Notes: generated by a model from the sequence alone, not told the origin. DNA of 64,000 bases from Pseudomonadota bacterium (GCA_021819435.1 JAKARB010000010.1:62001-126000), one strand, 5' to 3'; counted from the first letter of the stretch, positions 58,597 through 64,000 are shown. Translations and numbers: made by a program.

Positions 58597-59631
58597 ATGG
58601 GTCTGGTTGATTTCATCAAGAAGCAGTTCATCGATGTCATCGAGTGGAACGAGTCCGGAGACGGCGTGCTGGCTTGGCGGTACCCGTTCGAGGACCGCGA
58701 AATCCAGAACGGTGCCACCCTGGTCGTGCGCGAGTCGCAACTGGCCCTGTTCGTCAACGAAGGGCAGGTGGCCGACCTGTTCGGGCCGGGTACCCACCGG
58801 CTCACCAGCCAGACCTTGCCCCTGCTGACCAACCTGAAGAACTGGGACAAGCTGTTCGCCTCCCCTTTCAAGAGCGACGTTTATTTCTTCAGCACCCGCC
58901 AGCAGCTGGACCTGCGCTGGGGCACCAGCCAGCCCATCACCCTGCGTGACAAGGATTTCGGTGCGGTGCGCCTGCGCGCCTTCGGCAATTACGCCGTGCG
59001 CCTGAAAGATGCCCGCCACTTCCATGTGAATGTGTCCGGCACGCGCGAGCGCTACAGCGTCGAGGACCTCGACGGCCAGTTGCGCGGCGTGCTGCTGCAA
59101 CACCTCAGTGATGCGGTCGCCCAAAGCGGCATCCCTTTCCTCGACCTGGCCGCCAACCAGGTGGCTTTCGCGCAGGCCCTGGCAAAGGCGGTCACGCCCG
59201 CGTTTGAGCAACTGGGCTTGCAACTCGACGCCCTCACCGTGCAGAACGTGTCCCTGCCTGAAGAGCTGCAGAAGGTGCTGGACCAGAAGATCGGCATGGG
59301 CATGGTGGGCCAGAACATGGGCCAGTTCGTGCAATACCAGGCCGCGCAGGCCCTGCCGCAGGTCGCGGCCTCAGCCGGGCAGGGCTCGGGCGTAGCGGGC
59401 GATGCCGCTTCGCTGGGCGCCGGCCTGGCCCTGGGTCAGGTGATGGCGCAGTCCATCCAGCAAGGCCTGCAGGGCTCGGGGGCAGCCACGTCCTCTGCCG
59501 CGCCAGCGGGCCTGTCGCCCGATCAGGTCATGGCCACCATCGAGAAGCTGGCCGACCTGCACGCCAAGGGCATCCTCACCCCGGAAGAGTTCAGCGCCAA
59601 AAAGGCCGAATTGCTCAAGAAGCTGGTCTGA
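58597..59631 (+). CDS. SPFH/Band-7 domain protein with C-terminal SHOCT motif
   Basis: MGLVDFIKKQFIDVIEWNESGDGVLAWRYPFEDREIQNGATLVVRESQLALFVNEGQVADLFGPGTHRL; C-terminal LADLHAKGILTPEEFSAKKAELLKKLV. Confidence 0.88.
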   Translation: MGLVDFIKKQFIDVIEWNESGDGVLAWRYPFEDREIQNGATLVVRESQLALFVNEGQVADLFGPGTHRLTSQTLPLLTNLKNWDKLFASPFKSDVYFFSTRQQLDLRWGTSQPITLRDKDFGAVRLRAFGNYAVRLKDARHFHVNVSGTRERYSVEDLDGQLRGVLLQHLSDAVAQSGIPFLDLAANQVAFAQALAKAVTPAFEQLGLQLDALTVQNVSLPEELQKVLDQKIGMGMVGQNMGQFVQYQAAQALPQVAASAGQGSGVAGDAASLGAGLALGQVMAQSIQQGLQGSGAATSSAAPAGLSPDQVMATIEKLADLHAKGILTPEEFSAKKAELLKKLV

Positions 59632-59678
59632 GGAGTCGACGTTGTGTTCCATGCTTGAGCATGGCGGGGTGACCCGCC

Positions 59679-61277
59679 ATGGCTGATCCTTCGAGCTCGT
59701 CCCCGCGCTCCTGGCAGGCCGCATGCACCTTCTGTGGTGCACCGGTGACCTTCCGCTCGCCGGTTTCACCGATGGCGGTGTGCAGTTTCTGCCGCAGCAC
59801 CCTGGTGCGCGACGGCGAAACCTTGCGTCGCACGGGCCGCAGCGGTGTGCTGTTCGACGACCACAGTCCTCTGAAGCTGGGCACCCAGGGCCGTTGGCAG
59901 GGTGAAGGCTTTGCCCTGATCGGGCGCATTCAACTGAGCTATCAGGATCCGGACGGCCAGGCCGGTCGCTGGACCGAGTGGCAGGTGGTGTTTGACAACG
60001 GTCGGACCGCCACGTTGAGCGAGGACAACGGCGGACACGTCCTGAGCTTCCCCTTCGAGCTCGATGCCAAGCAGCTCGCGGCCATCCCCGATACCTTGGT
60101 CGGCACGGATCGCCACATCGGTGGCCGGCGCTGGACGCTGTCGTCTCGGCTGCAGGCCAGCGTGCACGCGCTAGAAGGCGAGGTGCTTCATGCGCCGCAG
60201 GTGTCGGGGCCGTTCACGGTCTCCGAGTGGCGCAATGGCGATGGCGAGGTGCTGAGCATCGAGGACATGCCGACCGGACGCCGCGCGGACCTGGGGCGAG
60301 CGGTTCAGCTCGATGACCTCCGGCTGGGTGGCAGTTTCGATCCTGGTGAGGCCTCCTCGGGCAAGGTGAAGTCCCAGGCCCTGGCGTGCCCCAACTGCGG
60401 TGCCGCGCTGACGCCTCGCCTGGACCAGGCCCGCACCATCGTTTGCGACAGTTGCCGCACGGTGATCGACATCAGCCGGGGTGTGGGGGCTGACCTCTCC
60501 TACTACCAGCAAAGCAACGCCCTCGAGCCCTTGATCCCGCTTGGGCTCGTGGGGCAGCTCACGGTGGGTGGCAAGCTGGGCAAGTGGCAGGTGGTCGGTT
60601 ACCAGGAGCGCTGCGAGAAGGCCGATTCGCCCGAGGCAACGCAGGTCTTCTGGCGTGAGTACCTGCTTTATCACCGCAGCCGTGGCTTCGCATTCCTGGT
60701 GGATGCCGCGGACGGTTGGAGCGTGGTTGCGCCCATCACGGGGGCGCCAAGCGTGGCCGCGAACGGCGTGAAGTGGCAGGGGCGGCATTACACGCTGAAG
60801 TACATCTACAGAGGTGTCACCACGCATGTGCTCGGGGAGTTCTACTGGCCCGTGCAACGCGACCAGATCACGCGCAACGCCGACTACGCCTGCCGGGAAG
60901 GGGAGAAGACCTTGCTGCTCAACCGCGAGTCGACCGGCGCGGAGGTGGTCTGGTCCGCCGGCGAGGCGATCGATCACGACGTGGTCATGAAAGCTTTCGG
61001 CTTGACGGGGCAACCGGTGGCGGCGTTCAAGCGCGATGTCAAGCCCATGGGCGACGGGGTGTTATGGGGGCTCCCGACCTCGGTGTGGCTGGCGATCCTG
61101 TTCGTGCTCGTCGTCCTCATGCTGCTCATGTGCTCGAATGACTGTGCGGACGTGAGGGAGCGGTATGGTGATCAAAGCCTCGAATATCGCCAATGCATCA
61201 GCAGGCCTAGCGGTCGTGGCGGCGGCAGCGGTGGCGGCTCATACGGCGGCTACAGCAGCGGAGGCTTCCACAAATGA
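59679..61277 (+). CDS. DUF4178 domain-containing protein with two zinc ribbons, TM helix and Gly-rich tail
   Basis: CTFCGAP..CSFC and CPNCGAA..CDSC; DUF4178-like repeats (LGTQGRWQGEGFALIGRIQLSY...WTEWQVVF); C-terminal TM and GGGSGGGSYGGYSSGGFHK. Confidence 0.85.
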   Translation: MADPSSSSPRSWQAACTFCGAPVTFRSPVSPMAVCSFCRSTLVRDGETLRRTGRSGVLFDDHSPLKLGTQGRWQGEGFALIGRIQLSYQDPDGQAGRWTEWQVVFDNGRTATLSEDNGGHVLSFPFELDAKQLAAIPDTLVGTDRHIGGRRWTLSSRLQASVHALEGEVLHAPQVSGPFTVSEWRNGDGEVLSIEDMPTGRRADLGRAVQLDDLRLGGSFDPGEASSGKVKSQALACPNCGAALTPRLDQARTIVCDSCRTVIDISRGVGADLSYYQQSNALEPLIPLGLVGQLTVGGKLGKWQVVGYQERCEKADSPEATQVFWREYLLYHRSRGFAFLVDAADGWSVVAPITGAPSVAANGVKWQGRHYTLKYIYRGVTTHVLGEFYWPVQRDQITRNADYACREGEKTLLLNRESTGAEVVWSAGEAIDHDVVMKAFGLTGQPVAAFKRDVKPMGDGVLWGLPTSVWLAILFVLVVLMLLMCSNDCADVRERYGDQSLEYRQCISRPSGRGGGSGGGSYGGYSSGGFHK

Positions 61278-61295
61278 AGAAAGGACTGGCACATC

Positions 61296-61517
61296 ATGGA
61301 ACTTGAGTGGTTCAAATTGAGCGTTTTCGTGGCGTCCATCAGCTACGCCCTGATCGGCGTGGTGCTGTTCTGGGTTTGCTTCATCGTCGTCGACAAGCTC
61401 ACGCCTTATGACCTGTGGGGCGAGATCGTCGAGAAGAAGAACGTGGCCCTGGCCATCGTGGTGGGGGCCATGTGCCTGGCAATTGGGCAGATCGTGGCAG
61501 CGGCCATCCATGGCTGA
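61296..61517 (+). CDS. DUF350 family small membrane protein
   Basis: SISYALIGVVLFWVCFIVVDKLTPYDLWGEIVEKKNVALAIVVGAMCLAIGQIVAAAI. Confidence 0.85.
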   Translation: MELEWFKLSVFVASISYALIGVVLFWVCFIVVDKLTPYDLWGEIVEKKNVALAIVVGAMCLAIGQIVAAAIHG

Positions 61518-63099
61518 TGAGATCGCTGGCGGGGCCGAAGTGGCGCTCGCCGACGCACGCCCCCGCATCGAACCCGCCGAGCTCGCGCTGCTGGTCTCGG
61601 TCTTCGTTGTGGCGGCCTGCGGGCTCGTGTACGAGTTGGCTGCCGGGGCCCTGGCCAGTTACCTGCTGGGTGACTCCGTCTTGCAGTTCTCCACCGTCAT
61701 CGGCACCTACTTGTTCGCCATGGGCGTGGGTTCGTGGCTGTCCAGGCACATTGAGCGGCAACTGGTGGCCCACTTCATGCGCATCGAATTGCTGGTCGGT
61801 GTCATTGGGGGGTTGATGCCGGCTGGGCTGTTCGCCGCGCACAGCGTCCTGCCCGTTGGCGCGGCGTCGGAGTTCCGGGCCTTGCTCTACGGCATGGTGC
61901 TGCTCATCGGCATCCTGGTGGGGTTGGAGATCCCGCTGGTCATGCGGATCTTGCAGCGGCGTTTTCGCGAGCGCTATGCGCTCAAGGACCTGGTCTCGCA
62001 GGTGCTGACCTTCGACTACCTGGGTGCGCTGGTCGTGTCGCTGGCTTTCCCGCTGATCATGGTGCCGCAACTGGGGGTGGTCCGCACGGGCGTCTTCTTC
62101 GGCCTGCTCAATGTGATGGTGGCGGTGTGGGTGTGCTGGCAGTTCCGTGCCGAGCTGCGCGCCTGGCCTCAGCATGCTGCGGCTTGTGTCCTGGCGCTGG
62201 TGCTGCTGTCGCTCGGCATGCTGGCAGGGCAGCCGCTGACGACCTGGGCCGAAGACCGCTTCTACGGCGATCACATCGTCATCAGGCAGGACACGCCTTA
62301 TCAGCGCATCGTGCTGACCCACGGGGGCGGCCAAACTCGGCTCTTCCTGAACGGCAACCTGCAGTTTTCCTCGCGTGACGAATACCGCTACCACGAGGCA
62401 CTGGTGCATCCCGCGCTGGCTGCGCAAGGGGCGCCGCGCCGAGTGCTGGTGCTCGGTGGTGGCGATGGCATGGCGGTGCGCGAGGTGCTGAAGTACCCCA
62501 GCGTGGAGCAGGTGACGCTGGTGGAGCTGGACCCGGCCATGACCCGCATGTTCAGCCAGGATGCGCGCCTGGTGGCACTGAACGCCGGTGCGCTGAAGCA
62601 CCCGAAGGTGCGTGTGGTCAACGCCGATGCCTTCGTCTGGCTGGGGGCGCATGACGAGGTGTTCGACGCCATCGTGGTCGACTTCCCTGACCCAACCAAC
62701 CATGCCATTGGCAAGCTGTACTCGACCACGTTCTACGCCTTGCTCGACCAGCACCTTTCGGCCAGTGGTTTCGCGGTGATACAGACCACCTCGCCCTTGA
62801 TCGCGCGCAAGAGCTTCTGGACGGTGGTGAGCACCATCGAGGCGGTGGGTTTGCAAGCCACGCCGTATCACGCCCATGTGCCGAGCTTCGGCGAATGGGG
62901 CTTCGTGCTGGCGCATCGGCGGCTTTGGCGCATGCCCGAGCGTTTGCCCGATGGGCTGCGCTTCCTGACCACGAAGGGCATGTCGGTGCTGTTCGACTTC
63001 CCGCCCGACATGGCGCGGGTGCCGGCCGAGCCCAATCGCCTGAGCAACCAGTCGCTGGTGCACACCTTCGAAGAAGAGTGGGGGCGGGTGCACCAATGA
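61510..63099 (+). CDS. membrane-anchored polyamine aminopropyltransferase (spermidine synthase-like)
   Basis: Multiple N-terminal TM helices; VLVLGGGDGMAVREVLKYPSVEQVTLVELDPAM SAM motif; DAIVVDFPDPTNHAIGKLYSTTFYALL. Confidence 0.9.
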   Translation: MADEIAGGAEVALADARPRIEPAELALLVSVFVVAACGLVYELAAGALASYLLGDSVLQFSTVIGTYLFAMGVGSWLSRHIERQLVAHFMRIELLVGVIGGLMPAGLFAAHSVLPVGAASEFRALLYGMVLLIGILVGLEIPLVMRILQRRFRERYALKDLVSQVLTFDYLGALVVSLAFPLIMVPQLGVVRTGVFFGLLNVMVAVWVCWQFRAELRAWPQHAAACVLALVLLSLGMLAGQPLTTWAEDRFYGDHIVIRQDTPYQRIVLTHGGGQTRLFLNGNLQFSSRDEYRYHEALVHPALAAQGAPRRVLVLGGGDGMAVREVLKYPSVEQVTLVELDPAMTRMFSQDARLVALNAGALKHPKVRVVNADAFVWLGAHDEVFDAIVVDFPDPTNHAIGKLYSTTFYALLDQHLSASGFAVIQTTSPLIARKSFWTVVSTIEAVGLQATPYHAHVPSFGEWGFVLAHRRLWRMPERLPDGLRFLTTKGMSVLFDFPPDMARVPAEPNRLSNQSLVHTFEEEWGRVHQ

Positions 63100-64000
63100 C
63101 GACCCGCCGTCGCGACGTGCTGCGACACGGCGCGGCCTGGTGCCTGGGCACCGGGCTGCTGGCCGGTTGCCGGGATGCCGGCGTCACGACCTTGCGCCCA
63201 GGCATCGCTGGCGGCTGGGTGGGTGCCCAGGTGGACCGTGGGCACGCCTGGCGCGATGGCCGACTGCCATCCTCCGCTGGGGGCGAGCCGGTGCGTCGCG
63301 TGCACACCCTGATCGTGGGCGCGGGCGTGGCGGGCTTGTCGGCCGGGCGTGGCTTGATGCGGGCCGGCATCGACGACTTCGCCCTGATCGACCTGGAGGA
63401 TGACCCGGGCGGCAACGCACGCGGGCACCAAATCCAGGGCATGCGCTGCCCGCTCGGGGCCCATTACCTGCCGGTGCCCGACGATGGGGCCGAGGATGTC
63501 GCTGCCTGGCTGGCCGAACTGGGTTTGATCCGGCGCCAGGCGGGGCGCTGGGTGGGCGACGAGCGCCACCTCGTTCACAGCCCGCAAGAGCGCCTTTTTG
63601 TGCCGGACGGAGGGCTGTCGCCACCGCAAGCCAATGGCTTCTGGCGCGGGCGCTGGCAGGAGGGCCTGGTGCCCGGAGCCGAAGACCCGGCGATGCGAGC
63701 CGACCTGCATCGTTTGCGCCATGCCATGGCCGCAGCCTTGTCTGGTGTGCGCCTGCGCCTGCCAACGTGGCGGACGCCTTGGTCAGCCCAACTGACTGCC
63801 TTGGACCAGGTCACGTTCGCCGACTGGCTGTCCCGGCAAGGCGTGCGCACCCGCGAACTGCTGTGGTGGTTGGACTACGCCTGCCGGGACGACTACGGCG
63901 CGGGCTTGTCCCGGGTCTCTGCCTGGGCGGGCTTGCAGTACCTCGCCAGCCGCCACGGCCTGGGCATGGGTGACGACGAAGGCGCCGACGCCGGTGGACG
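63096..64000 (+). CDS. FAD/NAD(P)-binding oxidoreductase with Tat-lipoprotein-type signal, 3' truncated by window
   Basis: MTTRRRDVLRHGAAWCLGTGLLAGC (RR + LAGC lipobox); VHTLIVGAGVAGLSAGRGLMRAGIDDFALIDLEDDPGGNARG; frame open to window end. Confidence 0.85.
   Translation, partial: MTTRRRDVLRHGAAWCLGTGLLAGCRDAGVTTLRPGIAGGWVGAQVDRGHAWRDGRLPSSAGGEPVRRVHTLIVGAGVAGLSAGRGLMRAGIDDFALIDLEDDPGGNARGHQIQGMRCPLGAHYLPVPDDGAEDVAAWLAELGLIRRQAGRWVGDERHLVHSPQERLFVPDGGLSPPQANGFWRGRWQEGLVPGAEDPAMRADLHRLRHAMAAALSGVRLRLPTWRTPWSAQLTALDQVTFADWLSRQGVRTRELLWWLDYACRDDYGAGLSRVSAWAGLQYLASRHGLGMGDDEGADAGG

What the first reader, a model, noticed from the sequence alone, without database searches (positions are those of the whole stretch)
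58597..64000. Five-gene SPFH / DUF4178 / DUF350 / aminopropyltransferase / FAD-oxidoreductase cluster: candidate polyamine-linked membrane system
Seen: five co-directional genes with gaps of 47 and 18 nt and then overlaps of 8 and 4 nt, and the last runs off the window. Products are a cytoplasmic SPFH-SHOCT scaffold, a zinc-ribbon DUF4178 membrane protein, a DUF350 membrane protein, a TM-anchored aminopropyltransferase with intact SAM motif, and an exported FAD oxidoreductase. Knowledge: DUF350 and spermidine-synthase-like genes are known to recur together, and the E. coli yjf operon combines DUF350, a PspA homologue and a glutathionylspermidine-synthetase-like ATP-grasp; I cannot verify here what has been published on this exact arrangement. 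Inference: the set may make, sense or oxidise an aminopropylated metabolite at the membrane under envelope or redox stress.
Basis: partly seen in the sequence, partly recalled or inferred. Interest (0 to 1): 0.75.

Follow-up and report, generated by a model that had tools for sequence, protein, structure and literature searches.

The report
Membrane-bound aminopropyl-transfer operon with SPFH scaffold
A set of six neighbouring genes, inherited together across many bacteria, appears to attach aminopropyl groups (the building block of polyamines) to an unknown target at the cell membrane, using a scaffold protein where related operons use the stress protein PspA; the general kind was already described, but this version is a distinct variant whose target molecule is still unknown.

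Summary
The five genes are real, with the stated gaps and overlaps. The fifth ends just past the window and abuts a convergent sixth, the genome's only AdoMet decarboxylase (SpeD). In 150 genomes of the order, the aminopropyltransferase (APT), DUF4178 and the flavoprotein occur in exactly the same 24. The order SPFH-DUF4178-DUF350-APT-flavoprotein holds in 55 of 58 full-length named Burkholderiales loci; the whole set, speD included, is also on plasmids of Novosphingobium and Gemmatirosa. Related APTs elsewhere sit with CesT/Tir-PspA, DUF4178 and DUF350. SPFH and PspA never share a locus (89 vs 11), and the window's genome has no PspA. The flavoprotein is a Tat lipoprotein; charge bias puts the APT catalytic domain on the periplasmic side. 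I favour aminopropylation of an envelope acceptor at the membrane, then flavin-dependent oxidation outside; the acceptor is unknown. Operons of this kind were published (Li 2019, Ravi 2024), so this is a new variant of a known kind.

The parts
58597..59631 (+). SPFH (Band_7_1) + C-terminal SHOCT protein, 344 aa, no TM; begins MGLVDFIKKQFIDVIEW, read here as a likely amphipathic membrane-binding helix; occupies the place PspA/CesT has in related operons
59679..61277 (+). DUF4178 protein, 532 aa: two DUF4178 domains, two CxxC zinc-ribbon-like pairs, one C-terminal TM, Gly-rich tail
61296..61517 (+). DUF350 protein, 73 aa, one 2-TM unit (related operons carry 2-unit and 4-unit forms)
61510..63099 (+). 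Aminopropyltransferase (spermidine-synthase-like) with about 7 N-terminal TM segments; GGGDG, RDEYRYHE and DFPDP motifs intact; PRK03612-type
63096..64000 (+). FAD oxidoreductase of the amine-oxidase superfamily, Tat signal and lipobox (Cys25 invariant); runs on past the window to the equivalent of 64823 (L003:1097-2824), 575 aa. The sixth gene of the module, speD (147 aa, minus strand), lies wholly outside the window at the equivalent of 64778-65221 (L003:2779-3222) and overlaps this gene's end by 46 nt

Best explanation
It is a dedicated membrane aminopropylation module, a variant of the PspA/DUF350/TM-spermidine-synthase operons. SpeD makes decarboxylated AdoMet in the cytoplasm. The 7-TM aminopropyltransferase, probably with DUF350 as a small membrane partner, transfers the aminopropyl group to an acceptor at the membrane. 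Its catalytic domain probably faces the periplasm, so the acceptor is most likely an envelope amine (for example a lipid head group) or a polyamine being exported, rather than the general cytoplasmic putrescine pool. The Tat-exported, lipid-anchored flavoprotein then oxidises the product or a related amine on the outer side. The SPFH-SHOCT protein replaces PspA-CesT as the scaffold on the inner face, and the zinc-ribbon DUF4178 protein, tethered by one TM, links or senses. Shown here: gene content, co-inheritance, intact active-site motifs, Tat lipoprotein signal, SPFH/PspA exclusivity. Inferred: topology, acceptor, the oxidation step, partner roles.
For: Identical distribution of APT, DUF4178 and flavoprotein: 24/24 vs 0/126; SpeD in all 24. 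At phylum scale all 20 DUF4178 genomes have the APT. Same order in 55 of 58 full-length loci, flavoprotein in 58/58, and full sets in Novosphingobium and Gemmatirosa. SpeD has the Ser/His/Cys catalytic residues and the Pro that marks true AdoMet decarboxylases. The cluster APT is the only PF01564 protein of the genome with GGGDG; the others have GLGGGS and GLGAAA. Flavoprotein lipobox Cys invariant, RR over 90%. Loop charges: K+R about 2-5 in loops 2, 4, 6 and about 0 in loops 1, 3, 5, so the C-terminal domain is predicted outside. SPFH and PspA never together; SPFH clade supported 98/97.
Against: No structure prediction was possible. Topology rests on the positive-inside rule; TM2 is weakly hydrophobic, TM7 falls under 1.6 in 10 of the 49 aligned sequences, and a periplasmic domain needs dcAdoMet outside, for which no route is known. 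Cys depletion of the APT domain fits export, but cytosolic SPFH is equally Cys-free. The genome has ornithine-decarboxylase-type enzymes, so putrescine and hence spermidine synthesis is possible. One Comamonadaceae species is reported to contain spermidine. The flavoprotein matches amine oxidases only weakly and mostly at the FAD-binding end.
Confidence: 0.5

Rival explanations
1. A membrane-bound housekeeping spermidine synthase: SpeD plus APT make ordinary spermidine from putrescine, and the other genes tune membrane or export of it; the flavoprotein is a spermidine/polyamine oxidase.
For: Only SpeD and only GGGDG aminopropyltransferase of the genome; NCBIfam equivalog 'polyamine aminopropyltransferase' 683 bits; putrescine-forming type decarboxylases present; spermidine reported in Lampropedia.
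Against: Absolute co-inheritance with DUF4178 and the flavoprotein is not expected of a housekeeping synthase, and 126 of 150 relatives lack it. From memory of its abstract (paper not held), Li et al. 2019 found that such fusions do not complement a spermidine synthase deletion and that spermidine is absent.
Confidence: 0.25
2. A PspA-like envelope-maintenance system in which polyamine chemistry is regulatory: the module senses polyamine or aminopropyl levels and SPFH-SHOCT remodels the membrane under stress.
For: SPFH-SHOCT sits where PspA-CesT sits in related operons and the genome has no PspA; Ravi et al. propose this for the PspA operons.
Against: No expression or phenotype data; two or three catalytic genes are invariant, which suggests chemistry rather than sensing.
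Confidence: 0.17
3. An anti-phage or other conflict system.
For: Some loci carry restriction-modification-like genes inside the operon gap (L094); SPFH proteins occur in some defence contexts (general knowledge).
Against: No meaningful PADLOC hit (one Rossmann-level match of the APT to mad2); flanked by varied, mostly housekeeping genes, vertically coherent clade.
Confidence: 0.03

Closest known systems
CesT/Tir-PspA operon with 7TM-spermidine-synthase fusion, DUF350, DUF4178 (Ravi et al. 2024, PMC11237479, group 2)
   Same: TM-APT, DUF350, DUF4178 and, in loci read here, SpeD; homologous APTs on one tree
   Different: Window has SPFH-SHOCT instead of PspA-CesT, a Tat lipoprotein flavoenzyme, and a 1-unit rather than 4-unit DUF350
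Band-7/SHOCT variant with AdoMet decarboxylase and polyamine oxidase (Ravi et al. 2024, variant of group 3)
   Same: Band-7 + SHOCT, SpeD, DUF350, a candidate amine oxidase
   Different: The published one has band-7 fused to 2 TM and a glutathionylspermidine-synthetase-like ATP-grasp; the window has neither TM in the SPFH protein nor an ATP-grasp in the cluster, and has a TM-APT and DUF4178
MFS-SpdSyn fusion linked with AdoMetDC and DUF350 (Li et al. 2019, Biochem J, pmid 31467246; cited from memory and through PMC11237479)
   Same: SpeD + membrane-fused spermidine-synthase-like protein + DUF350
   Different: Window adds SPFH-SHOCT, DUF4178 and the flavoprotein
Pseudomonas aeruginosa SpeD2-SpeE2 (PA4773-PA4774), pmrAB-linked
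   Same: Second class 1b SpeD next to an atypical APT, envelope-linked
   Different: PA4774 is a 349 aa thermospermine synthase (PMC11107197); none of the other genes

Membership tests
PspA-CesT/TM-spermidine synthase operon (Ravi group 2) | PspA + CesT/Tir dyad | tested here: not met
   No PspA in the genome; none in any SPFH locus
PspA-CesT/TM-spermidine synthase operon (Ravi group 2) | Spermidine-synthase-like domain fused to N-terminal TM domain | tested here: met
PspA-CesT/TM-spermidine synthase operon (Ravi group 2) | DUF350 and DUF4178 genes | tested here: met
Band-7/SHOCT variant with SpeD and polyamine oxidase (Ravi group 3 variant) | Band-7 + SHOCT protein and AdoMet decarboxylase | tested here: met
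Band-7/SHOCT variant with SpeD and polyamine oxidase (Ravi group 3 variant) | 2 TM in the band-7 protein; GspS-like ATP-grasp | tested here: not met
   No hydrophobic segment evident in P0001; Pfam on cluster and flanks gives no ATP-grasp; no further gene conserved in the block
Canonical spermidine synthase SpeE | dcAdoMet site GGGDG and catalytic Asp motif | tested here: met
   Conserved throughout
Canonical spermidine synthase SpeE | Stand-alone soluble protein of about 280 aa | tested here: not met
   529 aa with an N-terminal TM domain
Canonical spermidine synthase SpeE | Putrescine to spermidine activity | not testable with these tools
   needs an assay
AdoMet decarboxylase class 1b | Processing Ser, catalytic His and Cys, and the Pro separating it from arginine decarboxylases | tested here: met
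   Alignment to 1tlu/2iii read against the criteria of PMC10407285
Flavin polyamine oxidase | FAD-binding GxGxxG and amine-oxidase superfamily fold over most of the length | tested here: inconclusive
   Profile matches putrescine oxidase 3.6e-12 over profile positions 58-364 and MAO-B; many other matches cover only the N-terminal FAD region
Flavin polyamine oxidase | Catalytic Lys and amine substrate | not tested
Anti-phage defence system | Match to a defence family or defence-island context | tested here: not met
   flanks

The most novel reading that the evidence does not exclude
A periplasm-facing aminopropyltransferase uses exported decarboxylated AdoMet to aminopropylate an envelope molecule (for example a lipid head group), and a Tat-exported lipoprotein flavoenzyme oxidises the product: a new class of envelope modification, with SPFH-SHOCT doing the job PspA does in sister operons.
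Probability: 0.22. Interest if true: 0.85.

Novelty: new variant of a known kind. Interest (0 to 1): 0.5.

Why it matters
Many bacteria carry AdoMet decarboxylases next to membrane-bound spermidine-synthase-like proteins whose acceptor is unknown. This variant narrows the question: the same six genes travel together across phyla, the flavoenzyme is outside the cytoplasm, and the PspA/SPFH exchange suggests two unrelated scaffolds serve one chemistry. A deletion plus lipidomics in a tractable Burkholderiales strain could identify a new metabolite or lipid.

Tried and rejected
Cys depletion as evidence for a periplasmic APT domain: rejected, because the cytosolic SPFH protein is just as depleted. 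A seventh conserved gene in the operon gaps: none found; gap fillers are unrelated and lineage-specific. A first HMM for the flavoprotein picked up shadow frames of the APT and was rebuilt from trimmed domains. Defence reading: no support. Sigma-70 promoter and terminator scans: no promoter-like site and no more terminators than shuffles. Predicting the acceptor from APT motifs: the literature says spermidine synthases are not distinguished by them. Li et al. 2019 is not held.

Full report
WHAT IS THERE. The window lies at G000:C17:62001-126000 of a 4.4 Mb genome; the closest named relative of the APT is Aquabacterium parvum, 91% identical. The five genes are as described, with gaps of 47 and 18 nt and overlaps of 8 and 4 nt. 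Pfam confirms Band_7_1 + SHOCT, DUF4178, DUF350, Spermine_synth and an FAD/NAD-binding oxidoreductase. Reading past 64000, the FAD gene ends at the equivalent of 64823 and overlaps by 46 nt a convergent gene at 64778-65221 that is an AdoMet decarboxylase (PF02675 2.6e-25; TIGR03330 above cut-off). It is the only PF02675 hit in the genome. MurU and a fatty acid desaturase-like gene follow.

ENZYME MOTIFS. SpeD aligns with solved class 1b enzymes, keeping the processing Ser, the His, the Cys and the HTWPE Pro. By the criteria in PMC10407285 this is a true AdoMet decarboxylase rather than an ornithine or arginine decarboxylase; that the Pro of the paper is the one in HTWPE is my reading. The APT keeps RDEYRYHE, GGGDG, the acidic ribose-binding residue and DFPDP over 24 and 25 diverse sequences. 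The genome's two other PF01564 proteins have GLGGGS and GLGAAA there, so the cluster APT is the only one with a recognisable dcAdoMet site. The flavoprotein has a twin-arginine signal (over 90%) and an invariant lipobox Cys; it is a distant amine-oxidase-superfamily member (putrescine oxidase 3.6e-12, MAO-B, protoporphyrinogen oxidase).

CO-INHERITANCE. In 150 genomes of the order, the APT, DUF4178 and the flavoprotein are found in exactly the same 24 genomes (18 genera); Fisher p is 2.6e-28 for APT vs DUF4178, with the caveat that relatives are not independent. SpeD is in all 24 and in 28 others. In 299 genomes of the phylum, all 20 DUF4178 genomes are among the 31 APT genomes, and several of the remaining 11 have a divergent DUF4178-like gene next to the APT, below the Pfam cut-off.

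NEIGHBOURHOODS. Among 58 named Burkholderiales loci with full flanks, the flavoprotein is present in 58 and SPFH, DUF4178 and DUF350 in 55, always in the order SPFH-DUF4178-DUF350-APT-flavoprotein. SpeD is convergent within 10 kb in 25. These 80 loci are the best-scoring matches, so they over-represent close relatives. A second layout in other families has flavoprotein-APT divergent from DUF350 (two units)-SPFH-DUF4178-SpeD. Outside the class, Novosphingobium plasmid p1 has SPFH-DUF4178-DUF4178-DUF350-APT-FAD oxidoreductase-speD on one strand. Gemmatirosa (Gemmatimonadota) has SPFH-speD-DUF4178-DUF4178-DUF350-APT-flavoprotein. No other gene is conserved in the block.

SPFH FOR PspA. Related APTs in other lineages sit with SpeD, a CesT/Tir protein, PspA, a DUF4178 protein and a 4-unit DUF350. 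Over loci of at least 10 kb, SPFH occurs in 89 and PspA in 11, never together; the flavoprotein occurs only in non-PspA loci. The window's genome has no PspA. In a maximum-likelihood APT tree, all SPFH or flavoprotein loci fall in one clade (98/97), with DUF350 of one or two units. Thus one exchange of scaffold plus gain of the flavoprotein explains the pattern; the exclusivity is therefore not many independent events.

TOPOLOGY. Over both APT alignments, K+R per loop is about 2-5 in loops 2, 4 and 6 and about 0 in loops 1, 3 and 5. TM7 has a median 19-residue hydropathy of 1.7-2.0. This puts the catalytic domain outside, on the same side as the flavoprotein, whether or not the weak TM2 crosses. 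This is inference, not demonstration. Low Cys content was tested as support and rejected.

LITERATURE. Ravi et al. 2024 (PMC11237479) describe CesT/Tir-PspA operons with a 7TM-spermidine synthase fusion, DUF350 and DUF4178, and a variant with band-7-2TM-SHOCT, AdoMet decarboxylase and polyamine oxidase. They cite Li et al. 2019 on a polyamine-independent role of AdoMet decarboxylase, which is not held; its content is given here from memory. No functional study of DUF350 or DUF4178 was seen among the listed papers of the held library.

LIMITS. The collections searched are one genome per species, and the order and phylum samples are draws, not censuses. PspA was looked for genome-wide only in the window's own genome.

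VERDICT. A real, tightly co-inherited six-gene module; a new variant of a known kind. The function proposed, aminopropylation of an envelope acceptor followed by oxidation outside the cytoplasm, is the best reading but is not shown.

Noticed in passing
L003:3226-3999 (window equivalent 65225-65998), also L060, L091, L115, L116, L132, L134, L136: murU (MurNAc-1-phosphate uridylyltransferase) lies next to speD in the window's genome and in several relatives where speD is away from the operon.
   Followed up: partly
L005 and L006 (G000:C16:90011 and G000:C22:114901): Two further spermidine-synthase-like proteins of the genome lack the dcAdoMet Asp (GLGGGS, GLGAAA); their substrates are unknown.
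   Followed up: partly
L094:3687-9953: Genes that look like a DNA methyltransferase and a restriction/helicase protein are inserted between DUF350 and the APT in Paenacidovorax caeni (read by eye).
   Followed up: no
L094:11516-16377, similar in L110, L111, L133: A large membrane sensor histidine kinase-like ORF and a response-regulator ORF separate APT and flavoprotein in Acidovorax/Simplicispira relatives (read by eye).
   Followed up: no
G348:C2:82727-84217 (L143): The APT of one same-family genome carries an internal TGA stop, possibly a pseudogene or assembly error.
   Followed up: no
L193, L039 and L194 (G111:C40): In one genome the module is split over about 40 kb of one contig: DUF350-SPFH-DUF4178, then the APT, then the flavoprotein, each apart.
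   Followed up: partly
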